This document shows positions 1 through 59,281 of a stretch of DNA of 64,000 bases, piece after piece (within the stretch, counting starts at the first letter, position 1; every line of letters starts with the position of its first letter). Origin of the DNA: Thiocapsa marina 5811 (GTDB lineage: Bacteria; Pseudomonadota; Gammaproteobacteria; Chromatiales; Chromatiaceae); contig NZ_AFWV01000004.1 of assembly GCF_000223985.1 (NCBI RefSeq), positions 310,001-374,000 on the forward strand. Direction: 5' to 3'. The position numbers were made by a program, and so were the translations under genes. The notes beneath the pieces are model-generated. The model ran no database searches and was not told the origin of the DNA. It saw only the letters and a program-made list of their open reading frames with translations.

Positions 1-527
1 GAGAGCATGAGCAGGTCGGACGGTGTCTTGACCCCGAGCTCCCGCAGGCGCCGTGCCTCTCCCGTGCCGCATGCGCGCCCGGGCAGGCCATGTCGCGACG
101 CCACCTCGGCAAACGCCGGGATCAGCTCCCGCCGGCAATGCACGTGGTGGTGGCTGTCCAGATGGGTCGGCTCGATCCCCCAGCCGCGCAAGCGCGCGAT
201 CTGCGCGTCCCACTCCCGAACGACCTCGTCCGGATGACAGGCACCGAGTCCGCTTCGATGATCGGGAAATCGCCCGTCGAGCCCCACCAACGACGGGATA
301 TCGCGCGGATCGAGCAAGGGTCGGCCTCCGGTCAACTGGAGGTGACAACCGATCCGCCCAGCGAGCCGGTCGGCGACCCTGCACAGCCGAGCCTCGGCCC
401 CGGGGACACAGACCATTGCGGTGGTCGAGGACAGGACACCGCGGGTTGCGGTCTCCAGTGTCGCCTCGGTGACCATATCGGTCAGAGCGAGGTCGTCGGC
501 ATTGATGATGACGCGTGCGCGGATCAT
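1..527 (-). CDS. ChbG/HpnK (YdjC)-family carbohydrate deacetylase, C-terminus beyond window
   Basis: The reading frame starts at ATG 527 and stays open to the window edge, giving 175 visible residues. The family removes N-acetyl groups from small sugars or glycolipids (ChbG acts on chito-oligosaccharides, HpnK on hopanoid glycosides). Visible motifs are the metal-binding NADD at residues 9-12, GCHLQLTGG around 60-68 and the histidine-rich THLDSHHHVH at 121-130. All are characteristic of this fold. The start codon overlaps the stop of the upstream glycosyltransferase as ATGA, so the two are probably translated together. The context suggests deacetylation of a sugar added by that glycosyltransferase to the product of the neighbouring PKS/NRPS genes. 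The family call is firm; the substrate is inferred. Confidence 0.85.
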   Translation of the reverse strand, partial: MIRARVIINADDLALTDMVTEATLETATRGVLSSTTAMVCVPGAEARLCRVADRLAGRIGCHLQLTGGRPLLDPRDIPSLVGLDGRFPDHRSGLGACHPDEVVREWDAQIARLRGWGIEPTHLDSHHHVHCRRELIPAFAEVASRHGLPGRACGTGEARRLRELGVKTPSDLLML

Positions 528-1648
528 AGCGTAATTCGTCTCTTTGCAAGGGAGGCAAGCACGTGGGCCGCCCGTTCGGCACCGTCGCAATCCAGAGATG
601 CGGCACGCCCCGCAGTGCGGGCGCCGAGCGCCTCGTCGATCAGGGCCGCGAGGGACGTTGCACCTGCCTTCTCGTCGAAGTCCCAGACAGCATCCAGTTG
701 TCCGAGCGCGGCGGCGCGCTCGATCTGGTCGCTGCCGGATTCCGCATACGGGCAGAAAACGACCGGGAGGGCGGTTCGCAGCAGGGCGTACGCGGTGTTG
801 TACCCGCAGCGCGACACCACGAGGGATGCGCCGTCCACCGCCTGCTGCAAGGGCGCCCGTGTCAGCACGTGGATCCGGGATGCATCGATGCAGGATGCCG
901 TCGGATCGCCCAGAGGGCCGGCGACGACGCGCAAGCGGATCTCGCCGCGATCGAGTCGGGTGCGCAGGGCGGCTTCGAGCAACCGGAAGAGACGGACCCC
1001 GGTGCTGCCGCCTCCTGCGAGGCCGACCACCAAAGGCGGCGATTGCGGCGGCGCGGGCACGAATGCGGACTCGACGACATAGCCGACCGCGTGGCGCTCC
1101 TCGGGCAGGAGGTAGCCCTGTCGCTCGAAGGCCTCGGCGGCACGCTCGTGTCGCGGGTCCACGTAGCAGAGCGCGACGTCGTAGCGAGCGATGGCGCGCC
1201 GCACGCCGAGGTTCCGCGGCCCGCGCGCCGAGGGCCGGGGCCCGTAAGGGACACCGATGACGAACAGCGGCGCGTTCGGATTCCGAGGGGTCGATGCGAG
1301 CAGGGGCGCGAGCTCTCCGCCGAGCCCGAGAAAGAGATGGTCCACGAGCACCGCATGCGGGGCAAAGACCCGCAACGCCTCCGCGATCCGCTCGCTGCGC
1401 TCGCGCACGCACGCCGGGCCTGCGGGGTCGTCGGGTGCGGGCCAGTCGGGCAGCGCCGCGACCTGCAGCCCGGGCGGGAGGCGGAGACCGTCGAGCCCTT
1501 TTCGGCACGCCAGCAGCATGCAGGCGGCGTCCTGACGCTCCATCAGGGCGGCCGCGATCAGCAGGCTGCGTTGCACGTGGCCCACACCCAGCTGGGCATG
1601 GGCGTAGAGGAGAATTCGCGGAGTCGAGGGGCTCTGCGTCGGTGTCAC
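524..1648 (-). CDS. GT-B glycosyltransferase, MurG/UGT-like
   Basis: This encodes about 374 residues with a GT-B layout. The N-terminus reads RILLYAHAQLGVGHVQRSL, a MurG-like glycine- and histidine-containing nucleotide-sugar fold start. The C-terminal half has a donor-binding segment (SRCGYNTAYALL, then PVVFCPYAESGSDQIERA). It probably transfers a sugar to a lipid or natural product at the cytoplasmic membrane. I chose GTG 1648 because the frame open to 1765 would overlap the upstream ACP gene by 65 bases with low-complexity residues and has no better start. The downstream deacetylase gene overlaps it by four bases. The pairing resembles transfer of GlcNAc followed by deacetylation, but donor and acceptor cannot be read from the sequence. 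Confidence 0.8.
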   Translation of the reverse strand: MTPTQSPSTPRILLYAHAQLGVGHVQRSLLIAAALMERQDAACMLLACRKGLDGLRLPPGLQVAALPDWPAPDDPAGPACVRERSERIAEALRVFAPHAVLVDHLFLGLGGELAPLLASTPRNPNAPLFVIGVPYGPRPSARGPRNLGVRRAIARYDVALCYVDPRHERAAEAFERQGYLLPEERHAVGYVVESAFVPAPPQSPPLVVGLAGGGSTGVRLFRLLEAALRTRLDRGEIRLRVVAGPLGDPTASCIDASRIHVLTRAPLQQAVDGASLVVSRCGYNTAYALLRTALPVVFCPYAESGSDQIERAAALGQLDAVWDFDEKAGATSLAALIDEALGARTAGRAASLDCDGAERAAHVLASLAKRRITL

Positions 1649-1700
1649 CGCTGCAGGATCCGAGTGTCTTCGATGCGCGTTCGAGCGTCGCTCATCCGGT

Positions 1701-2012
1701 TCACATCGCCTGCGGACGCGGTGCCGGGGCGTCCTGATGGGTGAAGGCGAACTCGACCAGCTCACCGACGGTGAGCTCGTCGCGATACTGACCGTCGGCC
1801 ATGACCAGGGCCTCGTAGGGCAGACGCAGGCTCAGACGCAGGTCGAGCATGGCGAAGAGCTCCATCGCCTCGACGGAGGTCAGACAGAGATCGGTGTTCA
1901 GCATGGTCGCGGCGCCGAGCGGCTCCTCGAGCTCGAGGTCGGTATCGGCCAGGATGTCCTGGATGCATAGGAGCACTGCGTCTTGAATCTGTGCCTGTGT
2001 CAGGTTGTCCAT
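1701..2012 (-). CDS. free-standing acyl carrier protein
   Basis: A 103-residue acidic protein with a typical four-helix carrier-protein pattern. The phosphopantetheine attachment serine is S46 in LCLTSVEAMEL; most carrier proteins have Asp where this one has Thr before the Ser. Its ATG overlaps the last 13 bases of the upstream AT/DH megaprotein, so the pair is probably co-translated. It would carry acyl intermediates or a starter unit for the neighbouring synthases after activation by the Sfp-type transferase encoded at 17216-18118. The C-terminal tail after residue 90 is proline-rich and probably disordered. Confidence 0.85.
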   Translation of the reverse strand: MDNLTQAQIQDAVLLCIQDILADTDLELEEPLGAATMLNTDLCLTSVEAMELFAMLDLRLSLRLPYEALVMADGQYRDELTVGELVEFAFTHQDAPAPRPQAM

Positions 2013-5000
2013 TCGACCCTCGTTTTGTGTGTGATGGATTGTTCATGCTCGATGGCGTGAGCGGCGTTCAGCTGCATGTCGATGACCGCCCGGATCCGCC
2101 TGCCGACCCTCTCGATCTTCACGGGCGGAAGGGCCCCGCGGAGCCGGTCGGCCCAGTTCCCGACGGGACGGATGCGAGCGAGATGCCCTTGTGTTGCGGC
2201 CTCCTCGGTCAGCTCCACGCAAAGATCGAGGTGATCGGGCGATTGGCCCTCATGCTCCCTCAGCCAGACGATGGTCGCCTCTTTGGCCGCGAGACGCATC
2301 AGTAAATCGGTGTGTTTCCCGTCGCCGCCTGCCGGCAGCCTATCCTCCGGTCTGTTCCCGGCTTGTTGTTCCGTTTCGACGAGGACCAAACGTGCGAGCG
2401 CCGCGACGAAGATGCCGCCCGCGAGGTCCAGGTCATCGACGAGTTGTTCCGGGCACTCGCGCACGAGTCTCCGCGCGTCCGTCGCGGATCCGCCGGTTGT
2501 CAGCAGAGGTTGATTCTCGCGCCAATACAGCCGCGAGAGCATCGGCTGAAAGGGGTGGTAGACCATCAGGCGCATGCCGTCCATACGGGCGAAGACAGGT
2601 CCGTGCGGACGCGCGAAGCTCGCGTCCGCGACGAGCGTGTCGCCCTGCTGACGCACCCGGACCGAGCAGGCGACCCGATCGCCCGGTGCCGGAAGGTCGC
2701 CGGTCTGCCGATACCGATCGATCGCGACCGGAAATGCCGTGAACCAGCGGGTTCCGCGCGCGAGGAGCCAGAACGCGACCGCTTGGCCCACGGCGTCGAG
2801 CAAGGCGGCGGGTGTTGCCGCCTCCGCCTGGCGGTCCGGCCCGAATAGCCGGTCGCGCCGCGGTGCAACCGCCGTCAGCTCCAACCCGTCCTCGCGCAGG
2901 GCGATCAGACGATCGAGACAGCGAAACGCCGGCCCGTGAAAGAGCGCCAGCCGGTTGAAGTCGGCCATACTCCAAGCGGTCGCGAAGGGTGCGCCTCGGG
3001 TTTGAACCGGTTCCAAGGGGATGCTTGCGGTGCCGAGTATCACCTGTGCGGACACCGCCTCCCGAGCCGGCTCGTCGTCCCGCGTCGGCGGCGCAAAGAG
3101 TGCGGCGGAGAGGCGTTCGAGACCGTCGGCGTCGCGATGCCGTCCCTGTAGGCGGATGCGCAGACGCGATTGCCGCTGCGGCACGCTGATCCAGCGTTTT
3201 CCGAGGAGACCGTCGACACCCAAGAAGGCGAGCGGACCGCTGCCATTCCGGCCGGACAGCCCGCTTGCTGCACGGGCCATGACCTCCAGCGCCATCACCA
3301 TGGCCATGACCGGCAGTGGACGTTCGGGACGGGATTCTTCGCCGGCCGGGACCCGACCAAGGCGGTGATGGTCCAGATGTGTATCCCGATCCGGTTCCAA
3401 CAGCAGGTCGAGCTCGACCCCGCCGGCGACCTCGCGGGCGGGACCGTCGAAGGGTCCGTGGGATACTGCTCGGGGTGTGCTGCTCGGTAACGCAACCTCC
3501 CGCGGTTTCCGGGCCCTGGCGGCGGCGATGAATCCGAGCGCGACCCGTTCCTGAGTCTCGATGAATTGCCGTGTCAGGGCCAGTTGTCGATGCATGAGGG
3601 CGATGCGATCGGGGGTGAGCCCCCGCGGAATCGCGTCCGGGAAGCCGCGTGCGGGCTCGGGTGTGTTCGGTGCTTGGATGTGCTCGGCGGGATCCTGCTC
3701 GCCCAACGCCTCGGGTGGACTTGTCCGGACCCATTCAATGAGGTCCCGCTCGTTTTCGTCGGGTCCGGGAACGATCCCGAAATCCATCAGTTGCGCGGGG
3801 CCCGGCCGCAATCCGCCCAGGTCGATGCGCACGCCCGCCACGAATAAGGTCGCGAGCGCATCCAGGACGATCCGGGCGCCGTCTCCGCCTTCCCGATCGA
3901 GGCCCACCAGCGTAGCCGGCCGACGCCGCAGCACATCCTTGGTGTAGCCGACCAGTTGGCTGCGCCCGCCGATCTCCACGAAGGTGCGAATTCCGCGTGC
4001 GTAAAGCGATTCGATTGCCTCGCGAAACCGCACGGTCCCCGTCAGCGCCTGCTTGACGACTCCGGGGAAGCGTTGCGGATCGGACGGGTAGGGCGCGTTT
4101 GCCGCGCAGCTCCAGATCCGTGTCGCCGGCTTGCGATACCCCAGCCGGGCAAGCAGGCGCTCCAAGGGTTCGAGCTCCTCGCGATAGAGCGGGGTGTGGA
4201 ACGGGCGGTCGAAGGGTAGGTGCAGGCAGATATTGGCGCCCTCGTCGAGTGCGGCCACGACCCTATCGATCTCGGGCGCAAGACCGAACAGCACCACGTG
4301 TTTCGGCGAGGCGTCGATCGCGAGAAACACGCGACCGGCATGGATCTCCAGCAGCTCTCCGAGGCGCTCCCGGCCCTGGTCGACGAGGTGAACGGCCACC
4401 ATTCGCCCGGTTTGAATCAGGCCGTCGCAGCGTCGGCTCCTGCCCGAGGCCGCCGTATCCCAGATCAATCGTTCCCTGGTCATGCCGGGAGGCGGTTGCA
4501 TGGCGCCGGCGAGCAGCAGGGCGGCCATCTCGCCGTTGCTGAAGCCGAGCAAGGTGTCGGGCTCGAGTCCGGCTCGCGCGAGGAGTCTCGCCGATGCCAT
4601 GACGGCCATGGAGCCGACGGCGCCGCTCCAATCGAAATCGTTCCAGGCAGCAGACGCGGCAACCCCCACTCGATAGAGACTGTTGCAGAGATCCCCCGGC
4701 GGACCGGGCCACGCGGCTGCGAAGTCGTCCAAGGTGTCCATCACGGGCGGGAAGCTCAGTGCTTGGCTGCGCAGGATGCCGGGGTAGGCCGAGCCTATAC
4801 CGGGCGCCATGAAGGCGATGGAGGGCGGACCCTGGACCCCTGTCGGTGTGGCGTCCGGGAGCGAAAGATGGACGCCGATGCGCTTTGCTCGCATCGAACT
4901 GCCGACGCCGTCGAGGAGGTCGGCCGCGACCCGCAGTCGGTCCTCGAGCTCCTGTCGGTCGGCGGCGACGAATCCCAGTCGGGCAAGCCCCTCGTCGCGA

Positions 5001-6013
5001 TACACGGATTCGGCGAGCGCGGTCATGGAGAAGATCGCGGGGACCGCAGCCAGCCGATCGGCGAGAGTCGCGACCTCGGCACGCAGGGCCGCGGCCGATT
5101 CCGCGGCCATCAGGAACGGCTCGGCGGGCCAGGCGGTGACCGAATGCTGCAGGAGCACGCCTGGCTCGTCCGCGGCCCTCAGTCGGACAATCCGCTCCGA
5201 GCCGTCGGCACGCAGGACAATATCGGCACGCCGCGGACCTGCGCCGAGGCCGTGGACCCAGGGCGTTGCAGGTGTCGATTTCGTCCCCGACGGCGGCGGT
5301 CCGTACGGCGGAATCATGCGCTCGCGCACGGCGAGGGCGGCGACCGCCAGGGGCAACAGGCTGGTGAAGGTCTGCGAGAGGTGGAGCGCGTGTTCGGGTG
5401 ACCACCACCAGAGTTCGGGGCAGTCTCCCGCGGACTCCGAGGCGAGGTCGGATTGTGCCGCCGGACTCTCCGAGCCTAGCCGCAGGGCGGCCGGCTGAAA
5501 TGCACCAGGGTCGATGACCGCGAAGACCGGGGTGCGCGACGAGACCGCGACGGACAGGGGCATGAGCCCGACGATGGCGCCGCGGTCGAGCTCGCACGAG
5601 GCGATCAGGACCCGGGAAAAGCCCTCGCGAAGCAGCTCGCCGGCATGATCGAGCGCGCGCGCGCCGGACTCGGAGCCGCCGCCCAGCGACCAGACGCGAA
5701 CATCCGTCGGCGCGCACGGTGCGAGCCGGACCTCCAGATCGCGACGACGGACCGGCGCGCCCGGCGCGGAGCTGTCGCACACGACGATCGCTAGGGGCTG
5801 GGGTCTCTCGGGCGTGGTGAGTCGACGCAGGGCGGATGCGATCAGCTCGACCGGATCGAGCGTCGCTGTCGTGGATTCCAGCGAGCGCCCGGCCAGAAGC
5901 CCGTTCCAAACCGCCGCGACATCGGGCAGGCGGCCGACCCGCAAAGTCAGGTCGGTGATGGCGATCGGCCGGGAGTCATGCCCCCGATCGGTCTGCTGAC
6001 TGCGCTCGGACAT
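2000..6013 (-). CDS. polyketide synthase-like protein: degenerate KS, AT, DH
   Basis: A 1337-residue protein. Residues about 1-290 follow the outline of a ketosynthase (start IAITDLTLRVGRLPDV) but show no TACSSS cysteine motif and no EAHGTGT, so this part looks inactive. An acyltransferase-like domain follows at about 395-725, with GFSNGE near 489 instead of GHSxGE. It has FDRPFHTP where ATs usually read SHAFHSP, so the catalytic His position is Arg. A hot-dog dehydratase-like domain spans about 850-1160, with DHHRLG near 881 and LLDAVGQ near 1071, so the His/Asp pair is kept. The C-terminal segment has RLAAKEA near 1239, reminiscent of a phosphopantetheinyl transferase motif but too degenerate to call. 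The KS*-AT layout resembles PfaB-type subunits of PUFA synthases. It is divergently transcribed from the main PKS gene and probably works with it in trans. Confidence 0.8.
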   Translation of the reverse strand: MSERSQQTDRGHDSRPIAITDLTLRVGRLPDVAAVWNGLLAGRSLESTTATLDPVELIASALRRLTTPERPQPLAIVVCDSSAPGAPVRRRDLEVRLAPCAPTDVRVWSLGGGSESGARALDHAGELLREGFSRVLIASCELDRGAIVGLMPLSVAVSSRTPVFAVIDPGAFQPAALRLGSESPAAQSDLASESAGDCPELWWWSPEHALHLSQTFTSLLPLAVAALAVRERMIPPYGPPPSGTKSTPATPWVHGLGAGPRRADIVLRADGSERIVRLRAADEPGVLLQHSVTAWPAEPFLMAAESAAALRAEVATLADRLAAVPAIFSMTALAESVYRDEGLARLGFVAADRQELEDRLRVAADLLDGVGSSMRAKRIGVHLSLPDATPTGVQGPPSIAFMAPGIGSAYPGILRSQALSFPPVMDTLDDFAAAWPGPPGDLCNSLYRVGVAASAAWNDFDWSGAVGSMAVMASARLLARAGLEPDTLLGFSNGEMAALLLAGAMQPPPGMTRERLIWDTAASGRSRRCDGLIQTGRMVAVHLVDQGRERLGELLEIHAGRVFLAIDASPKHVVLFGLAPEIDRVVAALDEGANICLHLPFDRPFHTPLYREELEPLERLLARLGYRKPATRIWSCAANAPYPSDPQRFPGVVKQALTGTVRFREAIESLYARGIRTFVEIGGRSQLVGYTKDVLRRRPATLVGLDREGGDGARIVLDALATLFVAGVRIDLGGLRPGPAQLMDFGIVPGPDENERDLIEWVRTSPPEALGEQDPAEHIQAPNTPEPARGFPDAIPRGLTPDRIALMHRQLALTRQFIETQERVALGFIAAARARKPREVALPSSTPRAVSHGPFDGPAREVAGGVELDLLLEPDRDTHLDHHRLGRVPAGEESRPERPLPVMAMVMALEVMARAASGLSGRNGSGPLAFLGVDGLLGKRWISVPQRQSRLRIRLQGRHRDADGLERLSAALFAPPTRDDEPAREAVSAQVILGTASIPLEPVQTRGAPFATAWSMADFNRLALFHGPAFRCLDRLIALREDGLELTAVAPRRDRLFGPDRQAEAATPAALLDAVGQAVAFWLLARGTRWFTAFPVAIDRYRQTGDLPAPGDRVACSVRVRQQGDTLVADASFARPHGPVFARMDGMRLMVYHPFQPMLSRLYWRENQPLLTTGGSATDARRLVRECPEQLVDDLDLAGGIFVAALARLVLVETEQQAGNRPEDRLPAGGDGKHTDLLMRLAAKEATIVWLREHEGQSPDHLDLCVELTEEAATQGHLARIRPVGNWADRLRGALPPVKIERVGRRIRAVIDMQLNAAHAIEHEQSITHKTRVEWTT

Positions 6014-6305
6014 TCAGTGTTCCAGGGGGGTACGCGGCGAGGCTTGTGGTTCGGGACCGAGCCCCGCGGGCGTCAGGATACCCTCGGGCTCACAGGAGCG
6101 ATGACCTGCCGGGCAGGTCCGGGGCGGCTGGCTGTCTTGGCTTGACACGCGGCGCAGTATATTGTCCCCTCCGATCGCCTTCAAATCGAAATACGGTGGG
6201 CCGATTCGAGTCGGCTCTTGCAGCCGACCTGGAGCCCATGGCGTCTATGCATGCATCACGGGGCGGCGCGTTGAAAGAAACCTTCCCATTGGTAACCATC
6301 TCCCT
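6014..6305. promoter_or_regulatory. divergent intergenic region between the two synthase operons
   Basis: This gap separates two divergent operons, so it must hold at least two promoters. A -10-like TATATT lies at 6158-6163, facing right. The exact TTGACA at 6142-6147 is only 10 bases upstream of it, too close for a sigma-70 pair; TTGGCT at 6137-6142 with a 15-base spacer is the better but weak partner. The region also contains an open in-frame extension of the rightward synthase from TTG 6162, so part of it may be coding. I see no operator palindrome or regulator gene nearby. Confidence 0.35.
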
Positions 6306-9300
6306 GTGAAGAGCGCACAAGACCGCGCAGCCGACGCCGCACGTTCCTCCGTCGGCACTCAAGCATCCCGACTTCATCTCCTCTGCGCGCCCGCTCGGGC
6401 CGATCTATGCCGTGCGCTGCGCCGGGTTCTGGAGCGCGGGTCCGACAGGTTCGAGCCTCCGGCGGCGGGCGCTGTCCCGGAGAGGCATCGACTGGCCATT
6501 GTCAGTACGGACCCTGCCGACTTTGCAGGCTCCGTTGCCCGGGCACTCGATGCCCTCGAGACGCGTTCGAGCATGCGCTTGAATCTGGGCAACCGAATCT
6601 ACTACCGCGACGCCGGCGGGCTCGAGGAACCGGGCCGTGTTGCGGTGCTCTTTCCGGGGTTCGGTCATCGCGACACCGGGCTTGCGCGGCAGCTGTGCGG
6701 TCTGTCTCCGGCAGTCGATGCTTGGTACGGAAGCGTTGCGGGTCCACGTCCGTTCGGTCTCGCCTCGGGTGATTCGGGGTCGGAGCTTGCGGGGATGCTC
6801 GATGATGTCCTGATGGCCGATCTGGCCATGTGGGTCTTGCTGCGGGATCTCGGCCTAAGCTGCGATCTGCTCGTCGGCCATAGTTTCGGCGAGCATGCTG
6901 CTTTGGTGGCGTCCGGGATGGTGCCGAGCCTGGCCGATTTGAGCCCGCTCTTCGCGTCGGTCGCGAGCCTCGATGCCGAGGGCGACCCGCTCGGGATGCT
7001 GGCGATCACGGAGGCCGCCGTCGATCTGATCGCGCCCGAGATGCAACGCGATCCGCCGTCGGTCTTCATGGCGCTGGACAATTGTCGACAGCAAAAGGTC
7101 TTCTGGGGCCAGCCCGAGGTGCTCGGACGTGTCGAAGCGCAAGTCAAGGCACAAGGTCTGCTGGCATACCGTCTCGCGGGTTTGGCGTGTCCCGTGCACA
7201 CGCCCGCCTTCCCTGTTGGCGGTGAACAGTTGCGCCGAGACTATGCGGCACTCGCGCTCTCTGCGCCGCGGATCCCGGTGTGGAGCTGCAGCCGGCTGCG
7301 CCCGCTGCCCGAGGAGCGCACAGCCGCCACCGAGGTGCTGGCCGCGCAATGGCATGAGCCGGTGCGCTTCCGCGAAAGCATCCTTGCGCTCTTCGACGCC
7401 GGTTTCCGGACCTTCGTCGAGGTCGGCCCCGGCGAGCGGCTCTCCGGGTTCGTGCGCGAGACCCTTCGCGGCAAGGGCGTGTCGGCGGTGCCGACGCATC
7501 GCGAGGGCCACCCGCCCTTGCAGACGATCCACGTCGCCTTGGCTCAGCTTTATCTGCTCGGTCAGGCGATCGCTCCGGATCGCCTGAGCCCTCGGCCGAG
7601 CGTGTCCGAGGAGCGGTTCGACGGCCGCGGGATCACGTCGAGCGGTCCGCCGGAGACGCGTGGCGAATCCGGGCCGCCGCCGGCTGTGCAGCAACCCGCC
7701 TCGACGGATCGACAGCGGTTCCGGGATCTCGTCGAGGTGATTCAGGGCGAGGTCGCGGGATTGTTGGATCTCGCGGACCCCGAGTCGCTTGACTCCGAGA
7801 CCGGGTTTTTCGATCTCGGGCTCGGCTCTTTGGGTTGCGTGGAGCTCAGCGAACGTCTCGGGCGGGTGCTCGGGAGATCTCTGCCGCAAACACTCGCATT
7901 CGATTACCCGGACATCACGCGGCTGGCGCGGGCCTTGGCGAGCGCCCCGGGGACGTCTCCCGAGTGCGCCGGCAGCGACGCCGGGCGCGCAACCGCAGCG
8001 TCCGAATCCGCGTCCGAGAATGAGCCGATCGCGATTGTCGGGATCGGTTGCCGCTTTCCGGGCGGGGTCGATTCACCCGATGCATTCTGGCAACTGCTCC
8101 GAGAGGGCCGGGATGCGATCTCCGAGGTCCCGCCGGAGCGTTGGGATCCGGGGGTCTACGAGGGTTGGATCGACGCCGACCAGCGCGAGGCGGCCCGATT
8201 CGGCGGGTTTCTCGCCGACGCCTTGGGCTTCGACGCGGATTTCTTCGGTATCTCGCCCCGCGAAGCCAAGACACTCGATCCGCAGCAGCGCATGCTTCTG
8301 GAGGTCAGCTGGGAATCGCTCGAAGACGCCTGCATCGATCCTAAAGGTCTCGGCGGCTCCCGCACCGGCGTCTTTGTCGGCATCAGCAGCGCGGACTATG
8401 TTCAGCGGCTCTCGCCCACGCAGCGTCTGGAGGTCGGCGGCTATCTCGCCACGGGCAATGCGCCCAGCACGGCAGCCGGACGAATCGCGTTCGCGTTGGG
8501 CCTGAACGGCCCGGCGATGGCGGTCGATACGGCCTGCTCGTCGTCACTCGTCGCGGTACACCTGGCCTGCGCCAGCTTACGGCGCGGCGAGAGCGATCTG
8601 GCGTTGGCCGGGGGTGTCAATTTGATGCTCAATCCGGAGACGACCGTCTTTCTGGCCAATGCGCATGCCCTCTCGAGGAGCGGGCGGTGCCGGACCTTCG
8701 ATGCGGGCGCCGACGGCTATGTGCGTGCCGAGGGTTGCGGCGTCGTGGTGCTGAAACGGCTTTCGGATGCCTTGGCTGCGGGGGATGCGGTCGTCGCAGT
8801 GGTCTTGGGATCGGCCGTCAATCACGACGGGCGCACCTCCGGCTTGACGGTCCCGAGCGGTCCGGCCCAGAACGCATTGATCCGCGACTGTCTGCACTCG
8901 GCGGGGGTCGAGCCCTCGGAGGTCGGTTATCTCGAGGCCCACGGAACCGGGACTCCTTTGGGTGATCCGATCGAGCTACAGGCCCTGGGTGAGGTCTTTC
9001 GCTCGACGCGGGCGGTGCCGCTGCGACTCGGATCGGTCAAGTCCAATATCGGCCACCTCGAGGCGGCGGCCGGGATCGCCGGGCTGATCAAGGCCGCACT
9101 GCAACTACGCCGCCGTCGGCTGGTGCCGAGCCTCCATTTCCGGACACCGAACCCTCGCAGCAACTGGGCGTCTCTGCCGTTCGAGGTGAACCGGGACGAC
9201 CGGGATTGGGACTCGGTCGGGCGGCGGATCGCCGGGGTCAGCTCCTTCGGCATCAGTGGAACCAACGCCCATGTGATCCTTGCCGAGGCGCAGTCAACGC

Positions 9301-12119
9301 GTTCGGCGATCGAGCAGAATGCGGAGTCGGATGGGGCCGACACGGGCCGCGCGCATCTGCTGGTTCTGTCGGCCCGAACCCCCGAGGCACTGCGCACCGC
9401 GGCGCTGCGGATGGTTGATCGCCTGGAGGAGAGTCCGGTGGATCGCTCGATGGATCCTGGAGCCGTCGAGCCGGGTGCGTTTACAACGCTGGTTGGTTGC
9501 CCTGCGTCGACGTTGGTGGACTGCGCTTCGCTTGTCCACCCTACACCGCTTGTCCACCCTACACCGCTTGTCCAGCCTACCGCTCCGATCGGGGATGTCG
9601 CCGGGTTTATCGGCGACGCCGTCGAGCCACTGTCGGCACTGTGCCGGACCAGTTGGCTGGGACGCCATCATTGGCGCTACCGCATCGGGGTGGTTGCACG
9701 CAGCCGCTTGGAGGCGCGCGATCGACTGCGCGAGCGTATGGCCTCTGCGGCTGTCGACCGGGCAGGGGCCGAGGCGCGTGCCCCGCGTGTCGCCTTTCTG
9801 TTCACCGGGCAGGGCTCGCACGAGCCGGGGATGGGGCGTGAGCTCTACGCGACCGAGCCGGTCTTTCGCCGGGCATTCGATCGCTGTTGCGAGGGACTCG
9901 CCCCCGATCTGGAGGCGCCGCTGGCCGAGGTGGTGCTGGATCCTCGCGACCGGCGTTTGGAGCAAACGGCTTGGGCCCAACCCGGGCTCTTTGCCCTCGA
10001 ATACGCCTTGGTCGAGACCTGGCGCAGCCGCGGAATCGTTCCGGATGTGGTGATGGGTCATAGCCTCGGCGAGTACGTCGCGGCCTGCGTCGCGGGCGTG
10101 ATGTCGCTCGAAGATGCGTTGCGACTGGTCGCCGTGCGTGCGCGTTTGATGCAGTCCTTGCCCGCAGGTGGCGGCATGCTGAGCGTCGCGGCCTCTCCCG
10201 AGGGGCTGGAGTCCGTCGTCTCGCTCGCGTCGCTCGGGCTTGACCTGGCTGCGGTCAACGGCCCCGCGAGCCTTGTGGTCGCGGGTCCGGTCGGCGCACT
10301 CGATCGCGCGGAGCGTCGGCTCATGGAGGCCGGGATCGGTTGTCGACGCCTGCCCGTCTCCCATGCTTTTCATTCGCGCTTGGTCGAGCCGATCCTGGCC
10401 GAATTCGGTCGATATGTGGCGGCCTGTCGGCTCTCGGAGCCGCGCATCGAGATGGTGTCCAATCTCACCGGCGAGAGGGTGCGGCATGAGGTGACGGATC
10501 CCGCGTACTGGGTCGACCACCTTCGACGCACGGTTCGATTCGAGGCCGGGATGCGGACGCTCTCGACGCTCGGCTGCGATGCCTATGTCGAGATCGGTCC
10601 CAAACCCGTGTTGACCGCGCTCGGCCGCGAGTCGGCAGACGATGCCCGAGGCGTGCTCTGGCTGGCGAGCATGCAGCCGCCGGTCGATCCAAGCCTGACC
10701 CTGTTGAACGCCTTGGGCCAACTTTACGAGCGAGGCGCCGATCCGGAATGGACGGGGTTGGAGCCCGCAGCCGCGAAGCGGCCTCGGGCCCGGCTGCCGA
10801 CCACGCCCTTTGAACGCAGGAGCTTCTGGATCGAGATCGCCGAAGGGCGTCATGACGCCGTTGCTCCGTCGGATGCGCCGCCGCGTTTGCCCGGGCTTCT
10901 CTTGAACCTGCCCGGCAACACCGGTGCTCTGCGCTTCGAGGCCCGAACGGGCGTCGGCCTGACCCCCGAGCTCGACGGCTATCCGGCGCTCGCCGAGCGA
11001 GCTCTTCCTCCGGGTCTTCTCCTCTACGCGGCGCTGCGGGCGGCGCGTCGGGCCGCACCCGGTATCGAGATGTGGTTGGAGGCCCTACGGCTTGTCGATG
11101 TTCAGCGATTGGCGGACCCCTGCGTGATCCTGCACACCCTGGTGAAGACGCCGAACGCCGATCCCGGGGTGGTCGAGATCTACGGTCGCGCCGAGGGTGT
11201 AGAGGATGCGCCTTGGAGCCTGCTCATACAGGCGCGTTTGCGCGCCGTATCGGGTTCACCTCAGCCTGAGCCCCGGCCCATGTCCGGTCGTACTCGGGAT
11301 GCGGACGAATCGCTGCTCGCGCGTCTTCGCTCGGCACATTCCGCCATCGAGAAGGCCGCTTTTTATCGCGCGGGTGAGCAGCTCGGATTCCGATACGGTC
11401 CCGATCTGCAGGTGCTGCGCGAGATCCGCCTCGGCATGCACGCGGCGAGCGCCGTTCTGGATCTGCAGACCGGCGGCGGCGTCGACCCCTCGCCCCTACC
11501 CGATCTACCGCTGGCGGCGATCGAAGGCGGGCTGCAGCTCCTGGGCGGACTTGATGCCGGTGCGACGCCGCCGCGGGTCAGACAGCTGCGCGCGATCGAC
11601 CGCATCGACGTCGCCGCCCCGCTCCCGCGCGAGGTCTTGGTGTTGGTGTGGCGAGCGGAGGATCACGCATCCGCGACGATTCGGCTCCTCGATGCGCGGT
11701 CCTTTTTATTGTGTGCCGAGCTCTCAGGGATTCAGTCGGACGCGATGGAAATCACCCGGGTCTCGACGGCGGAGGGCGAGATTCGAGACAGGCTCGAGCG
11801 TGTGCCTCGCGAGGAGTGGCCACCGCTCATCGTGGGCTTCGTGAACCGAATCGCCGGTCTGATCATCGACGGGAGTCCCGATTACCGCATCGACCCGAGC
11901 CGACCTCTCACCGAGCTCGGCTTGGATTCGCTGATGGCCTTGCGGATCGCCATCGAGCTCAAGGCCGATCTCGGCGTGGAGATCCCGGTCTCGCAGATCG
12001 TCTCGGGTGCCACGATCGAGACACTGGCGGCCGTGAGCGTGGAGCAGGTCATGGACGGCGATCTGACGACGGAGGTCTCGCAAAGGCTCGACGGATTCTT
12101 CCAAGAGGGCGAGCTGTGA
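6306..12119 (+). CDS. modular type I polyketide synthase AT-ACP-KS-AT-DH*-ACP
   Basis: About 1937 residues. In order: a loading-type AT with GHSFGE near 191; ACP1 with LGLGSLG near 506; and a full KS at about 573-995 with [15 protein letters not shown] and NIGHLE. Next is AT2 at about 1159-1450 with GHSLGE and HAFHS, the latter favouring malonyl-CoA. A dehydratase-fold region follows at about 1520-1810, in which the catalytic His reads Tyr (LDGYPAL) and the Asp reads Glu (AAIEGGLQ), so it is probably inactive. ACP2 has [11 protein letters not shown] near 1865. No ketoreductase or enoylreductase is present. I prefer GTG 6306; TTG 6162 is an in-frame alternative with a non-homologous 48-residue extension. 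The stop overlaps the NRPS start as GTGA, and the ACP end meets a TubC docking domain, so the chain passes directly to the NRPS. Confidence 0.92.
9515..9580 (+). repeat. palindromic GGTGGAC repeat with 18-bp tandem tail, inside the PKS gene
   Basis: The block begins with an imperfect palindrome (GGTGGACTGCGCTTCGCTTGTCCACC) of the kind also found between genes at 44579-44608 and 52753-52782. An 18-base unit starting CGCTTGTCCACCCTACAC at 9529 then recurs at 9547 and, shortened, at 9565. It lies in frame in the linker between KS and AT2 and encodes a repeated LVHPTP peptide. It looks like a mobile palindromic repeat that landed in a tolerant linker and then expanded. Confidence 0.75.
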
Positions 12120-15100: not shown

Positions 15101-16261
15101 GTCGATGCTCGAGCCATGCGCGCGCTGCAGCCGGCGGAGATCACCGGCCAACGGCGTGCACCGATCACGGATGCGACCCAGTTGCGGCTGGGCGTGATCT
15201 TCTCGGAGGTCTTGCGTGTCGAGCAGTTGAGTGCGCAGGACGATTTCTTTGCGCTCGGCGGCCATTCGCTCTTGGCTGTCCAGCTGGCGGGGCGGATCTT
15301 CGAAGAATTCGGTAAGCGGCTGCCGCTGGCCGTCTTCTTCACACATCGCACGATCGAGGCCCTGGCCGAGGCGCTCCGGCAGTCGGGCGACCCTGTCGAG
15401 CGGGATACCGTTCTCGTTCCGATCCGCCGAAGCGGGGACGGCGCGCCGATCATCCTCTTTCCCGGTGCCGGCGGCAGCATTCTTTACTTCGAGGCATTGG
15501 CCGTCGCCCTGGGCGCCTTGGCTCCGATCTGGGGTGCACAAGGTTCGAGGGGCGATGTTGCCTCGATGGCCTCGCGATACCACGAGGCGATCCTGCGCCA
15601 TCTCGGGCCTCGACCCTGCCATCTGATCGGCCATTCCTTCGGTGCATTGGTCGCTTTCGAGCTTGCGCGTTTGCGTGAGGCCGCTGGTTATCCGACCGGA
15701 TCGCTCTGGGCCTTGGACAATCCGGGCCCGCGGGCGGTGGGCGAGGAACGATACCGTGACTGGAGCCTTCCCGATTGGTATGCCCATATCGCTCGACGCA
15801 TCGCCCGACTCTACGATGTCCCTTTGGCCCTTGATCGCGCCGCGTTGGACGGCAGGACAGGCGCCGAGCAGGCCGAACGCTTCGCCGATTATCTGGTCGA
15901 GGCCGGTGCCCTGCCGCGCGGGACGCCCCGGGAGCAGCTCGAGGAGTACGTCGCGACCTATCGCGAGAACGTCATTGCGGGGGAGCGCTATGCTGGACCC
16001 GTCGCGCCCCTGCGCATGCCGATCCAACTGGTCAAGGCGCGCGATCGGGACGGGCTTCTCGCATCCGAGGATGCCCCCGAGGATCTGTCGTCGGATTGGA
16101 TGTCCTGCAGCGCGCAACCGATCCGCTCGTTCGAGGTTCCCGGAACCCACATCACGATGCTGCTGAGGCCCCATGTGGATCATCTTGCCGAGCGCATTCG
16201 GTCGCTGATCGGGGCGTCATCCGAATCCAACGACATGGATCGCGAGGTACTGTCCCCATGA
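12116..16261 (+). CDS. non-ribosomal peptide synthetase TubC-C-A-PCP-TE
   Basis: A 1381-residue single-module synthetase. Residues 1-60 match a TubC N-terminal docking domain ([17 protein letters not shown]), the type that receives a chain from an upstream PKS ACP. The condensation domain carries HHIACDGWS near 187. The adenylation domain at about 505-1000 has [14 protein letters not shown] near 656 and PNGKVD at its end. Placing its pocket residues on GrsA gives D-L-T-K-I-G-H-I-G plus the usual Lys, very close to the published aspartate code. The PCP has GGHSLLAV near 1051. The C-terminal thioesterase has [11 protein letters not shown] near 1173 and a late GTH. There is no epimerase or reductase domain. 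The start overlaps the PKS stop and its own stop overlaps the next gene, so it lies mid-operon. It probably condenses the polyketide with one amino acid and releases it by hydrolysis or cyclisation. Confidence 0.92.
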
Positions 16262-17274
16262 ATGCTGCCTTTCTTGCCTGCGGCGGTATGCTGGCCTGCG
16301 CCGTCGGAGCCGCGGCCCGTCTCGGGATTGCCGACCTGCTGGCTGACGAGCACTTGTCGGCGGGCGCTCTGGCTGAACGAACCGCGACGCTTCCCGACGT
16401 TCTCGAAGTCGTCCTCGATCTACTTTGTACCCAAGGGGTGTTCCGTCGCGATGAAGCGGGTCGCTTCTCCAACACGCCGGACTCCGAACCGTTGCGCTCC
16501 GATCATCCGCGATCGATGCGCCATTTCTGCATCTTGGCGTCTGCCGAGTACCAACAGGCCTTCGGGGCACTGATGGTGACCCTCTCGACCGGAGAGTCGG
16601 GGTTCCGCGCGACCTTCAACGGCTCCATCTACGACTATATGACGCGAAATCCGGAGCCCGGCCGCGTCTACGATCTGGCGATGGAGGATTTGTCCCGTCC
16701 GTTGTCGGCGATCCTTGCGAGCGAGTGGCCCTTTGCGGAGGCCGCGACGCTCTTGGACCTCGGCGGCGGACACGGCGTTTTGCTGCGTGGTCTCCTTCGC
16801 GCTCGACCGGACTTGCGGGGGGTCTGCTTCGATCGCCGAGACGTCTGCGTGCGAGGTGATCTCGATCTCCGGCAGATGGCCCCGGATTTGGTCGGACGCT
16901 TGCGTTTCCTGGGCGGCGACTTCTTCGCCGACGTCTTGCCCGATGCCGATGTGTATCTGCTGAAGAACGTCATTCACAACTGGACGGACGAGAGCGCGAT
17001 CCGGCTTCTTGCGAACGTCGCGAACGCTTTGAGCACGCGCTCGAATGCCCGCCTCTTGGTGATCGAATCGCTCACGGATGGCGGATTCTCCGAGACCTAT
17101 CGTGCGATCGACGCGTTGCTTGCGCGCGTACTCTGCGAATCCGGGACGCGTCTGCGCGACCTGAATACCTTGAGCCGTTTGGTCGAAAGTAGCGGCCTCG
17201 TGGTGTTGCGGGCGAATGTGCTGTCGACCGGGCATACCCTTCTGGAATGCGCAGGCACATCCGTTGAGTCGTGA
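16258..17274 (+). CDS. O-methyltransferase, Methyltransf_2-like
   Basis: A 338-residue protein. The N-terminal half is a helical winged-helix dimerisation region (GAAARLGIADLLADEHLSAG). The C-terminal half is a Rossmann SAM-binding domain with LLDLGGGHGVLL near 165 and the family signature LLKNVIHNWTDE near 240. Members such as plant and antibiotic O-methyltransferases methylate hydroxyls or enols of secondary metabolites. The ATG overlaps the NRPS stop as ATGA, so it is almost certainly a tailoring enzyme of this cluster, perhaps acting on a beta-keto enol or carboxylate. The acceptor is inferred only. Confidence 0.88.
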   Translation: MNAAFLACGGMLACAVGAAARLGIADLLADEHLSAGALAERTATLPDVLEVVLDLLCTQGVFRRDEAGRFSNTPDSEPLRSDHPRSMRHFCILASAEYQQAFGALMVTLSTGESGFRATFNGSIYDYMTRNPEPGRVYDLAMEDLSRPLSAILASEWPFAEAATLLDLGGGHGVLLRGLLRARPDLRGVCFDRRDVCVRGDLDLRQMAPDLVGRLRFLGGDFFADVLPDADVYLLKNVIHNWTDESAIRLLANVANALSTRSNARLLVIESLTDGGFSETYRAIDALLARVLCESGTRLRDLNTLSRLVESSGLVVLRANVLSTGHTLLECAGTSVES

Positions 17275-18118
17275 GGAGCGACGAGCCACGCCACTGCCGG
17301 ATGGCGATCGGCGACCGACGAATCAGTTCCACGGGGGCCATGCTGCCCCACCGAGCAGCCGATTCCCGCCCCTCGTCGAGCGACCGCTTCCCCCGCTCGA
17401 CGACGAGATTCATCTCTATACTTGGAATCTAGACAGGCCCGACCTACAGATCGACGCCGACTGGATGTCGCGCGACGAGCGCAACCGCGCCGAGAGGTTT
17501 CGATTCGAGCGAGACCGTGGCAGATTCCGCGCCGCGCGACAAACGTTGCGTTGGATCCTCGGGTCGTGTTGCGGATCTTCCCCGGACGCGATCCGATTCG
17601 ACTACGGCGGTGCAGGGAAGCCGTACCTCTTCGGTAGCGAGCTGGCCTTCAATCTCTCCCACTCGGCTGGGCGGGCACTCCTCGCGGTCGTCTCGCGCGG
17701 TCCCGTCGGGGTCGATCTAGAGGAGATCAGGCCTATCGGGGGGCTGCTCACCATTGCAGAGCGCTATTTCTCGCCGATCGAAGCCGCGGAGCTCACGCGG
17801 ATCTCCGGTCGATTCCCGGGGCTTGCTCGGCAGGCATTCTTCCGGTGCTGGACACGCAAGGAGGCCTTTCTGAAGGCGTCCGGCGCGGGGCTGTCGGAAG
17901 AGGCTCTTCGCGCCTTCGCAGTCTCCTGTCATCCGGACGAGGCGCCGCGTCTTTTGATTGACAATAGCTCCATTGGGGATCGTTCGGGGTGGTCCTTGAC
18001 CGATGTCGCGCCTTATGACGGCTTCGTCGGTGCCGTGGTGACGTCCGGGTCGCGCCGACGTTGGTCGGCCTGGGAGCTCGGGAGCGAACTGCCGCCAAGC
18101 GTGTCCGCTTCTCGGTGA
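17216..18118 (+). CDS. Sfp-type 4'-phosphopantetheinyl transferase
   Basis: It converts apo carrier proteins to holo form using coenzyme A. The diagnostic motifs are all visible: GKPYL and FNLSHSAG in the middle, GVDLEEI (magnesium-binding Asp and Glu), and WTRKEAFLKASGAGL near the end. The total of 300 residues is somewhat long because of an N-terminal proline-rich leader of about 60 residues. ATG 17216 overlaps the methyltransferase gene by 59 bases; TTG 17264, with an 11-base overlap, is a plausible alternative that removes most of the overlap. It lies in the PKS/NRPS operon and would activate the two ACPs of the PKS, the PCP of the NRPS and the free ACP. Confidence 0.9.
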   Translation: MCCRPGIPFWNAQAHPLSREERRATPLPDGDRRPTNQFHGGHAAPPSSRFPPLVERPLPPLDDEIHLYTWNLDRPDLQIDADWMSRDERNRAERFRFERDRGRFRAARQTLRWILGSCCGSSPDAIRFDYGGAGKPYLFGSELAFNLSHSAGRALLAVVSRGPVGVDLEEIRPIGGLLTIAERYFSPIEAAELTRISGRFPGLARQAFFRCWTRKEAFLKASGAGLSEEALRAFAVSCHPDEAPRLLIDNSSIGDRSGWSLTDVAPYDGFVGAVVTSGSRRRWSAWELGSELPPSVSASR

Positions 18119-18252: not shown

Positions 18253-18864
18253 ATGCCAGAACAGCCCCCCTCCGAGATCGTCAACAGCCTGTTCGCCGAC
18301 CTGCCGCAAGTCCATGCCGAGCTTGGTAATCCGGAAGGCGGTGTGTGGCGCACGGATCGACCTTGCTATGAATTCATCGCGGATCGATGCGAGCCGCAAT
18401 GGCGAACCCTGGAGACGGGATTGGGGCTCTCAACGATGCTGTTTGTGCTGATTGGCACCGAGCATACCTGCGTCGCACCTTGGAAGAGCGAGATCGACAA
18501 TCTTCTGCTGCATTGTCGGGACAGGCAAATCGCGACCGAGCGACTGACCTTGATCCAAGGCTTCAGCGACGATGTATTGTCGACCTTACCGCAGACTGAG
18601 CTCGACCTTGTTCTGATCGACGGCGGCCACGGCTTTCCGACTCCCATGATCGATTGGTATTACAGTGCCGGGCGCTTGCGGCAAGGTGGCGTGCTGGTGA
18701 TCGACGACGTCCATCTGCCTGCCGTCCGGCTTCTTCTGGGCTATCTCGATGCCGATCCCCGGTGGACCTCGATCGTAAAGACGCCGAAGTGGGTCGCCTA
18801 CGAACGTGAATCCAATGGTCCGCTCAGGGAGAGTCACGCTCAGCAAAGGTTCTGGAGTATCTAG
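18253..18864 (+). CDS. small class I SAM-dependent methyltransferase-like protein
   Basis: A 203-residue protein of the Methyltransf_24 type. The SAM-binding loop reads ETGLGLSTMLF from residue 54. Later come DLVLIDGGHGFPTPMIDW and GGVLVIDDVH, which are typical strand-4 and strand-5 regions. Expected catalytic residues for a particular acceptor are not recognisable. It starts 134 bases after the phosphopantetheinyl transferase gene on the same strand, so it may be the last gene of the synthase operon or a stand-alone gene. The 216 bases after it, up to 19080, hold no gene or clear terminator that I can see. Confidence 0.7.
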   Translation: MPEQPPSEIVNSLFADLPQVHAELGNPEGGVWRTDRPCYEFIADRCEPQWRTLETGLGLSTMLFVLIGTEHTCVAPWKSEIDNLLLHCRDRQIATERLTLIQGFSDDVLSTLPQTELDLVLIDGGHGFPTPMIDWYYSAGRLRQGGVLVIDDVHLPAVRLLLGYLDADPRWTSIVKTPKWVAYERESNGPLRESHAQQRFWSI

Positions 18865-21357: not shown

Positions 21358-21408
21358 GTTCTTCGCCCTCGAATCGGATGAAGATGGTAGGATCGACGGT
21401 CTCGCATG

Positions 21409-22125
21409 TTACGATCTCGGGCGGCGCAAATCCATTTTAGCCTCCTCCGGGGAGTAACCGAAGACCTCGAAATCCGAACGATATTTCTCGTATACGACGG
21501 CTAGATCGTCTTCCGATGAATAGAAATGATGAAGACCCTTAAGCATGTTCGACGAGGTGTTGCGCGGCGAGATATTTTCGGGTGGAGGTATTCCGATACG
21601 CTGAAAAACCTTCGCGATGTCCCGATCGAAATACTCGACTCGTCCGACGTAGTCGACGAGAACCCTGAATGATCCGCCGGACGGTTCCGTCAATAGCTTC
21701 GTCATTGACGGCTCGACGAAGGCGGGATGACGGATGAATTCGGAAAAACCGTCGCTTTCAAGGAATGCTTTCGAGATAGGCCACGTGTCGATGATCTCCT
21801 TATTGGCTCCGAGAATCGTACGATGCAGTTTCGCGATGAAGGTATAGAAAGAGATCACCCGAAGAAACGGATTTCGGACGAAGCCGAACTTAAAATAGGC
21901 TTCAAACGTTTCATCGCCAACGACATCGCGAACGTCGCAAGCGCCGGCATGTTTCCAGAGGCCGAAACGTTGCTGATAGACGCCCTGAAGGGTCTCGCCC
22001 AGGGTTGAGACACCGAGCTCGATGTCGTTCCAGCAGCTGTAGGGGCTAAGAAGATCCGTGATGGTTGAGCCGGCGCATTTATGAGTATGGATAAAGATGA
22101 ACTTTCTGCTGTTGGATATAATCAT
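21409..22125 (-). CDS. PAPS-dependent carbohydrate sulfotransferase family protein
   Basis: A 238-residue protein of the Sulfotransfer_2-like class, which moves a sulfate from PAPS to a sugar hydroxyl. The 5'-phosphosulfate loop is HTHKCAGSTITD at 13-24, with K16 as the expected binding residue. The 3'-phosphate motif is FVRNPFLRVISFY from residue 82, with R84 and S92. The gene has visibly more A/T-rich codons than its neighbours, which may indicate later acquisition. It lies between the FG-GAP protein and glycosyltransferase genes on the same strand. A sulfated exopolysaccharide or glycan is therefore a reasonable inference. Confidence 0.82.
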   Translation of the reverse strand: MIISNSRKFIFIHTHKCAGSTITDLLSPYSCWNDIELGVSTLGETLQGVYQQRFGLWKHAGACDVRDVVGDETFEAYFKFGFVRNPFLRVISFYTFIAKLHRTILGANKEIIDTWPISKAFLESDGFSEFIRHPAFVEPSMTKLLTEPSGGSFRVLVDYVGRVEYFDRDIAKVFQRIGIPPPENISPRNTSSNMLKGLHHFYSSEDDLAVVYEKYRSDFEVFGYSPEEAKMDLRRPRS

Positions 22126-22192
22126 CAGATCGGGTCCATGAGTGAGCGGTATCCGTGTTGAGTCTTTCGTGGCCGGGCTGCGGTTTTATCGA

Positions 22193-24109: not shown

Positions 24110-24179
24110 GGTCAATGCCTTCTCGTGGCGGTGATCTTGACGTCGAAAAAGACCTCGCGATCGAGGATGTCGGATCCGG

Positions 24180-59216: not shown

Positions 59217-59281
59217 ACTTGACGCGAAACGGGACTATAAGCGCGGTTCGGTCGGATTTCCAGACATGAGGGGTGCGGACT

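What the first reader, a model, noticed from the sequence alone, without database searches (positions are those of the whole stretch)
1..18118. Divergent hybrid PKS/NRPS locus with trans-acting PKS-like protein, sugar tailoring and its own PPTase
One operon carries AT-ACP-KS-AT-DH*-ACP, TubC-C-A-PCP-TE, O-methyltransferase and PPTase; the divergent one carries KS*-AT-DH, ACP, glycosyltransferase and ChbG-type deacetylase. Neither has a ketoreductase. I do not recognise this combination as a known pathway. The inferred product is a glycosylated, possibly methylated acyl-amino acid or small lipopeptide.
Basis: partly seen in the sequence, partly recalled or inferred. Interest (0 to 1): 0.8.

Follow-up and report, generated by a model that had tools for sequence, protein, structure and literature searches.

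The report
Hybrid lipid-aspartate-sugar gene cluster
The window cuts through a gene cluster, probably of a purple sulfur bacterium, that seems to build a long fatty chain, hand it to a second assembly line that adds one amino acid (probably aspartate), and attach sugars; it is a new variant of a recently charted type of cluster and suggests how the two assembly lines are joined.

Summary
Left of position 1 the minus-strand operon runs another 13.3 kb and encodes a 2521-aa PUFA-synthase-like enzyme (PfaD-type ER fused to KS-MAT-ACP-ACP-KR), a Gfo/Idh dehydrogenase, a DegT aminotransferase, a second glycosyltransferase and an MsbA-like exporter. So a ketoreductase is present, and the 'KS*-AT-DH' protein is the PfaB/PfaC-like subunit of that synthase. 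All 13 genes keep their order in a second species; 2 of 11 held genomes of the genus have the cluster. It is a 'triple hybrid' (PUFA-synthase-like + PKS + NRPS), a kind charted in 2026 (63 clusters). New here: the N-terminal AT of the modular PKS is a PfaB-type acyltransferase followed by an ACP, a plausible built-in bridge for chain hand-off, a step left open for the described chitinimine pathway. The PKS module has no KR and a DH without its catalytic His, and the A domain reads DLTKIGHIGK (Asp-like); the product is predicted to be an amino-sugar glycoside of an N-(beta-ketoacyl)-aspartate or of its tetramic acid, resembling ancorinosides. Hand-off, tetramate, sugar position and chain length are inference.

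The parts
2000..6013 (-). PfaBC-like subunit, 1337 aa: N-terminal remnant without KS active site, PfaB-type AT (GFSNGE), DH
   Evidence: Pfam Acyl_transf_1 2.1e-15 and PS-DH 8.9e-08; AT tree and profiles; 82% identical in G023
1701..2012 (-). small free-standing carrier-protein-like gene, 103 aa
   Evidence: weak AsbD-like NCBIfam match 7.6e-04, no Pfam match; 94% identical in G023
524..1648 (-). glycosyltransferase with GT28 C-terminal domain
   Evidence: PF04101 4.5e-07; start; no PDB relative at E 0.01
1..527 (-). YdjC/ChbG-type carbohydrate deacetylase; 258 aa in all, continues 249 bases beyond the window
   Evidence: PF04794 1.3e-47; coordinates
1..1 (-). left continuation OUTSIDE the window, contig C59 coordinates (window position 1 = 310001): Gfo/Idh dehydrogenase 308527-309612, DegT aminotransferase 307325-308521, fused PfaD-PfaA-like synthase ER-KS-MAT-ACP-ACP-KR 299436-307001, PLOD-type glycosyltransferase 298589-299449, MsbA-like ABC exporter 296651-298573, all on the minus strand
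6162..12119 (+). modular PKS AT1(PfaB-type)-ACP-KS-AT2(malonyl-type)-DH(inactive)-ACP; open frame given, start probably GTG 6306
   Evidence: Pfam; AT classes; DH motifs
6609..7571 (+). AT1 domain, PfaB-type acyltransferase
   Evidence: groups with PfaBC ATs 100/99; profile 209 against 150 bits
12116..16261 (+). NRPS TubC-C-A-PCP-TE, A-domain code DLTKIGHIGK (Asp-like)
   Evidence: Pfam; code and motifs
16258..17274 (+). O-methyltransferase, Methyltransf_2 family
   Evidence: PF00891 1.2e-25; start
17264..18118 (+). Sfp/HetI-type phosphopantetheinyl transferase, start uncertain
   Evidence: PF01648 1.1e-14; NCBIfam HetI 162 bits, below its cut-off of 370

Best explanation
One biosynthetic cluster for a glycosylated hybrid lipid. 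(1) The fused PfaD-PfaA-like enzyme (ER-KS-MAT-ACP2-KR) with the PfaBC-like subunit (PfaB-type AT and DH) builds a long acyl chain iteratively from malonyl units; KR-only cycles can leave hydroxyl groups. (2) The PfaB-type AT1 at the front of the modular PKS takes the finished chain and loads it on the adjacent ACP1. (3) KS and the malonyl-type AT2 add one C2 unit; with no KR and an inactive DH the beta-keto group stays. (4) The NRPS module joins this to an amino acid, most likely aspartate, and the TE releases it, by hydrolysis or by Dieckmann cyclisation to a 3-acyl tetramic acid. (5) Gfo/Idh and DegT make a nucleotide-bound amino sugar (by analogy 3-amino-3-deoxy), two glycosyltransferases attach sugars, the YdjC deacetylase may free an amino group, the O-methyltransferase methylates. 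(6) The local PPTase activates the carriers and the MsbA-like ABC protein exports the amphiphile. Shown by sequence: the domains, their conservation, the class of AT1, the lost DH motif. Inferred: substrates, hand-off, order of tailoring, product.
For: 13 genes in the same order in two species, 75-96% identical. Complete iterative set KS, MAT, 2 ACP, KR, ER, DH once the left flank is read. pfaDA KS lies among KSs of fused PfaDA enzymes of other bacteria, PKS KS outside. AT1 groups with PfaBC ATs in two trees (100/99) and by profile (209 against 150 bits, 202 against 153 in G023; 33 of 33 left-out controls right). Its best matches in other genomes of the family include the PfaBC-like open frames of G004, G028, G051 and G002. 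[quoted passage not shown] the Arg is also missing in AT1 (by eye). PKS DH lacks His and evolves at dN/dS 0.40, against 0.21 for the PfaBC DH. A code DLTKIGHIGK in both species, two residues from DLTKVGHVGK, predicted Asp in PMC10391617.
Against: No product is known. AU test does not reject AT1 at the base of MATs plus modular ATs (p 0.159), and AT1 sits on a long branch (2.3-2.7 changes per column). Neither ER, KS-AT, Gfo/Idh, DegT, PPTase nor ABC protein reaches the curated NCBIfam cut-off of its best model. In PDB sequence searches AT1's best match is a malonyl transacylase, with no PfaB among the 56 matches. PMC13291983 reads the AT of the chitinimine PfaBC-like protein as malonyl-specific, so a PfaB-type place in the tree need not mean long-chain substrates. 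ACP1 and ACP2 of the PKS show dN/dS 0.34 and 0.31, not much below the DH. No hydroxylase or epimerase was seen, and no site for the sugar is known.
Confidence: 0.62

Rival explanations
1. Two separate pathways: the left operon makes a heterocyst-glycolipid-like glycosylated lipid, the right operon makes a small beta-ketoacyl-aspartate from a short starter loaded by AT1; they share only the promoter region and the PPTase.
For: The operons are divergent. Each has its own logic; PfaDA and PfaBC pairs occur without any NRPS in other bacteria: none of the 15 loci showed an NRPS match (several loci end at contig ends).
Against: The two operons are kept together in both species that have either; the only PPTase found in the cluster lies in the right operon; AT1 is of the PfaB class, which would be odd for a short starter.
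Confidence: 0.2
2. Same cluster, but the chain is passed directly from the PfaDA ACPs to the PKS KS, as proposed for chitinimine, and AT1-ACP1 does something else (editing hydrolase, or loading of a different starter).
For: Direct transfer to the KS is the published proposal for chitinimine (PMC13291983 section 9); hydrolase activity was reported for some PfaB homologues (PMC12895367 passages).
Against: AT1 is fused to an ACP directly before the KS and is conserved at dN/dS 0.13; the PfaBC-like protein already supplies a PfaB-type AT for editing or release.
Confidence: 0.3
3. A decaying, silent cluster.
For: Two domains have lost catalytic motifs and evolve faster, dN/dS about 0.4.
Against: No inner stop in any of the 14 frames checked in the window's genome, MT24 included; KS, AT, KR, ER, C, A, PCP and TE domains at dN/dS 0.09-0.27; a lost DH is expected where no KR precedes it.
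Confidence: 0.05

Closest known systems
Ottowia thiooxydans DSM 14619 triple hybrid (PMC13291983, section 7 read)
   Same: Fused PfaDA, fused PfaBC without the canonical KS-CLF, PKS-NRPS beside it, one glycosyltransferase
   Different: Ottowia: trimodular PKS-NRPS following in line and an extra NAPAA-type NRPS; here one PKS and one NRPS module on a divergent operon, two glycosyltransferases and amino-sugar genes.
Chitinimine/dioxanopeptin, megapolipeptin and zeamine clusters (PMC13291983 sections; PMC12964715 and PMC3547906 passages)
   Same: PUFA-synthase-like enzymes feeding or joining a PKS-NRPS line
   Different: Those lines have several NRPS modules; no glycosylation genes are named in what I read; zeamine has no PfaB (PMC3547906); chain transfer in chitinimine is presumed to go straight to a KS
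Heterocyst glycolipid synthases (Type F) and other secondary lipid synthases (PMC3098273, section 5 parts 1-2 read)
   Same: Pfa-like synthase for a long chain; glycosylated lipid in Type F
   Different: No NRPS in the Type F description read; ER position and fusion differ
Ancorinosides A-D, sponge compounds (PMC8541288 and PMC6163716, passages)
   Same: Chemistry only: aspartate-derived 3-acyl tetramic acid, long plain chain, two sugars
   Different: Hexose and uronic acid instead of amino sugar; D-Asp, while no epimerisation domain was found here; 'biosynth' does not occur in PMC8541288, and searches listed no gene cluster for them

Membership tests
[quoted passage not shown]
   Left operon ends 149 bases from the PKS frame; PfaDA-like gene about 9 kb from the PKS, NRPS adjacent
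[quoted passage not shown]
   Same order in G023; only one relative has it, 2 of 11 genomes of the genus
Pfa (secondary lipid) synthase | PfaA-type KS, ACP and KR in one system, with MAT, ER, DH | tested here: met
   KS tree places it among KSs of fused PfaDA enzymes, 97/93 and 99/99 splits
Canonical omega-3 PUFA synthase (pfaABCD) | NCBIfam PfaA model cut-off, KS-CLF pair, two DH domains | tested here: not met
   TIGR02813 875.6 bits against cut-off 1010.1; no KS or CLF found in the PfaBC-like protein and one PS-DH stretch
PfaB-type acyltransferase (AT1) | Tree or profile position with PfaB-type ATs | tested here: met
   100/99 in two trees, profile 209 against 150 bits; AU test leaves a basal alternative, p 0.159
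PfaB-type acyltransferase (AT1) | No malonyl-binding arginine; catalytic Ser and His kept | tested here: met
   Column table (by eye): no Arg in AT1 (2 of 2) or the PfaBC ATs, GHSFGE and His kept. HTP after the His region: AT1 2 of 2, PfaBC ATs 13 of 16, MATs 1 of 21, AT2 and modular 0 of 3
PfaB-type acyltransferase (AT1) | Transfers long acyl chains | not testable with these tools
   needs enzyme assay
Tetramate-forming PKS-NRPS | Unreduced beta-ketoacyl donor followed by one amino acid module | tested here: met
   No KR in the module; DH without His; C-A-PCP-TE next
Tetramate-forming PKS-NRPS | Dieckmann-competent release domain | tested here: inconclusive
   TE with GHSFG present; sequence alone does not tell hydrolysis from Dieckmann. 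TE modules are one known bacterial route (PMC9685919 passage)

The most novel reading that the evidence does not exclude
The PfaB-type AT fused to an ACP is a dedicated transfer didomain that moves a finished PUFA-synthase-type chain onto a modular PKS, and the cluster makes an ancorinoside-like, amino-sugar-bearing, aspartate-derived 3-acyl tetramic acid in a phototrophic purple sulfur bacterium, which would give a genetic model for that compound class.
Probability: 0.3. Interest if true: 0.72.

Novelty: new variant of a known kind. Interest (0 to 1): 0.52.

Why it matters
How a chain made on a PUFA-type synthase is passed to a PKS-NRPS line is unsettled: for chitinimine, transfer is presumed to go directly to a KS, and a role for a thioesterase is left to be investigated (PMC13291983, section 9). 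An AT of the PfaB class in front of the modular PKS, next to its own ACP, is a small, discrete test object for that step. The cluster would also add amino-sugar glycosylation and a single aspartate to the range of such hybrids, in a family (Chromatiaceae) that the main text of that survey does not name (its supplements were not readable here).

Tried and rejected
Considered and dropped: 'no ketoreductase' (a KR lies left of the window); an A domain close to the second module of linear gramicidin synthase (the high PDB score was the sum of two domains, 210 and 223 bits); plasmid-borne relatives of P0001 (no match at E 1e-40); phage families for P0007 and P0014 (none at E 0.001); membership of the methyltransferase gene 18253-18864 (no match at E 1e-5 in the two G023 stretches).

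Led nowhere: fold of residues 1-293 of P0001 (block pLDDT mostly 20-39); its fold search gave ordinary PKS KS-AT and AT structures in the 50 rows shown, none named PfaB; PDB sequence search for the glycosyltransferase (no match). Literature searches for a Chromatiaceae or Thiocapsa cluster and for ancorinoside biosynthesis (passages) showed none in the rows listed. Flank searches did not find the border of the shared island, since both flanks have close orthologues only in the same two genomes. The species name was not found.

Errors of mine: the OMT row was read in a wrong frame and is not used, and the PPTase row (dN/dS 0.39) used an approximate start; adjacent stretches were joined with one base doubled, so frames printed right of window 9999 were off and were not used.

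Rows and limits: before the trees and profiles, duplicate stretches of one genome and fragments were dropped (AT under 200, KS under 300 residues, plus a named skip list in the scripts). The profiles used 14 PfaB-type and 19 MAT rows and left out the two genomes' own ATs and the C57 PKS. Genome searches score only the best few candidates of a first look per genome (2 to 7), so absence there is not strict. One search printed rows above 70 bits only. One search returned 15 loci; L032 matches only the KR part.
Full report
Where it is. The window is contig C59, positions 310001-374000, of a 5.6-Mb genome. The genome has two matches to the reaction-centre family Photo_RC. Its family handle f1 is shared with G004, whose locus L010 is contained letter for letter in the Rhabdochromatium marinum DSM 5261 locus L018, which the tree tool labels Chromatiaceae. 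I take the host to be a purple sulfur bacterium of that family; the species name is unknown.

What is there. The left (minus) series does not end at the window edge. It runs from 6013 to contig position 296651 with nine genes: PfaBC-like protein, small ACP-like protein, GT28-like glycosyltransferase, YdjC deacetylase, Gfo/Idh dehydrogenase, DegT aminotransferase, a 2521-aa synthase, a PLOD-type glycosyltransferase and an ABC exporter. That it is one operon is inferred from strand and spacing; the two widest gaps are about 140 and 320 bases. The synthase reads NMO/FabK-type ER, KS (1.6e-60), AT (2.9e-46), two ACPs, KR (1.1e-31). Its best NCBIfam model is the PUFA synthase PfaA, 875.6 bits, below that model's cut-off of 1010.1. 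So the missing ketoreductase is next door.

Conservation. In G023, another species of the genus, all thirteen genes are present in the same order and orientation, from 75% (PPTase) to 96% (Gfo/Idh) identical. Of 11 held genomes of the genus 2 have the PfaBC-like protein. In the order 4 of 210 genomes match it at E 1e-50, two of them at only 29-31% identity; in the class sample 2 of 369 and in the phylum sample 2 of 398, each time this genome and one relative at 30-31%. Between the two species, KS, MAT/AT, ER and KR domains show dN/dS 0.09-0.20, the C, A, PCP and TE domains 0.18-0.27, the DH of the PfaBC-like protein 0.21; the PKS DH shows 0.40 and the N-terminal remnant of the PfaBC-like protein 0.41, as do linkers (0.44-0.52); the PKS ACPs lie between (0.34, 0.31). 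The two domains that look dead by motif thus evolve like linkers.

The bridge. In a tree of 42 AT domains the N-terminal AT of the PKS falls with the ATs of PfaBC-like proteins (split 100/99), away from malonyl transferases and from the PKS's own second AT. The tool warned of long branches; with the two genomes' own PfaBC ATs and the two actinobacterial ones left out, AT1 stays there, again 100/99. Profiles from 14 PfaB-type and 19 MAT domains classify 33 of 33 left-out controls rightly and score AT1 at 209 against 150 bits (202 against 153 in G023) and AT2 at 129 against 188. By eye, AT1 and the PfaBC ATs lack the arginine that MATs have in this column; HTP follows in 2 of 2 AT1, 13 of 16 PfaBC ATs, 1 of 21 MATs and 0 of 3 modular ATs. 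Against this, the AU test rejects AT1 as sister of the modular ATs (p 0.018) but not a place with MATs plus modular ATs (p 0.159), and the PDB sequence search gives malonyl transacylase as AT1's best match. With AT1-ACP1 as query 11 of 204 genomes of the order and 22 of 398 of the phylum sample match at E 1e-20; apart from G000 and G023's PKS, all listed matches stop at or before residue 375 of 473, before the ACP. Bacterial PfaB was reported in 2026 as a terminal long-chain acyltransferase without the Gln-Arg pair; its authors call off-loading to another ACP possible but unconfirmed (PMC12895367, abstract and passages). I infer that AT1 moves the finished chain onto ACP1. A caution: PMC13291983 reads the AT of the chitinimine PfaBC-like protein as malonyl-specific.

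The head group. AT2 has the HAFH motif and the arginine of malonyl-type ATs, the module has no KR, and in both species its DH lacks the catalytic His and has Glu for the catalytic Asp (read by eye). The beta-keto group should stay. The A-domain code, read at recalled GrsA positions, is DLTKIGHIGK in both species. DLTKVGHVGK, two residues different, is predicted Asp and belongs to the beta-hydroxy-Asp position of tistrellabactin (PMC10391617 table); the same code is listed for both Asp and Asn domains (PMC12283262 passage). TE-bearing PKS-NRPS modules are one of the known releases to bacterial tetramic acids (PMC9685919 passage). Hence a 3-acyl tetramic acid with a carboxymethyl group, or the linear beta-ketoacyl-aspartate.

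The sugars. The Gfo/Idh protein's best solved relatives are 3q2k and 3q2i, which I recall as WlbA; the DegT protein's two matches at E 1e-30 are 1b9h and 1b9i, 3-amino-5-hydroxybenzoic acid synthase. Pairs of these two families make 3-amino-3-deoxy sugar nucleotides (WlbA/WlbE, GnnA/GnnB, RifL/RifK; recalled). The donor is thus probably a 3-amino sugar, though neither protein reaches a curated cut-off. Where the sugar goes is open. In dioxanopeptin and chitinimine early KR-only cycles leave hydroxyls near the far end of the chain (PMC12964715 passages; PMC13291983 section 9); the same here would give a two-headed amphiphile.

Comparison. The cluster meets the search rule of the triple hybrids charted in PMC13291983 (sections 5, 7 and 9 read; 63 clusters kept). 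'Chromatiaceae', 'Thiocapsa' and 'tetramic' do not occur in that paper's main text; its supplements could not be read, so this cluster may be listed there. Of 15 named loci found with the PfaDA alignment none showed an NRPS or sugar-gene match in the stretch held; the only tailoring or export match was an ABC ATPase in L023 (several loci end at contig ends). The known chemistry most like the prediction is that of the ancorinosides, aspartate tetramates with a C20-21 chain and two sugars (PMC8541288, PMC6163716 passages), which differ in sugar type and carry D-Asp.

Verdict. A real, apparently intact and conserved gene cluster; the kind is known, the variant is new as far as these searches go. 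The strongest new point is the PfaB-type AT-ACP front end of the modular PKS.

Noticed in passing
G000 contig C57:38001-56000 (L035:4532-9409, minus): A second PKS in the same genome: KS-AT-ACP followed by a class III aminotransferase domain, a combination known from beta-amino-acyl lipopeptide and microcystin-type pathways (recalled). Its neighbours were not read.
   Followed up: partly
window 19081-32344: Right of the cluster lie a UnbV/ASPIC FG-GAP protein, a sulfotransferase, and large multi-domain glycosyltransferases (GT2-methyltransferase, PIG-L-GT2-GT1, GT2-WbsX), which look like a surface-glycan locus. The PIG-L-GT2 protein left of the cluster is 38% identical to part of the one on the right.
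   Followed up: partly
window 18253-18864: Methyltransf_24 gene just after the PPTase, in the same direction, with no match in the G023 stretches at E 1e-5; possibly not part of the cluster.
   Followed up: partly
window 59134-59222 (minus): Glycine riboswitch aptamer, 74.8 bits, the only Rfam match over gathering score in the window.
   Followed up: no
L018, L019, L039, L036 (Rhabdochromatium and other genomes of the family): Other members of the family carry a fused PfaDA-like gene beside a PfaBC-like gene with an intact KS Cys, with no NRPS match in the stretches compared by tblastn (L036 and L039 themselves were not so compared, L017 and L016 of the same genomes were). I know no product for them.
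   Followed up: partly
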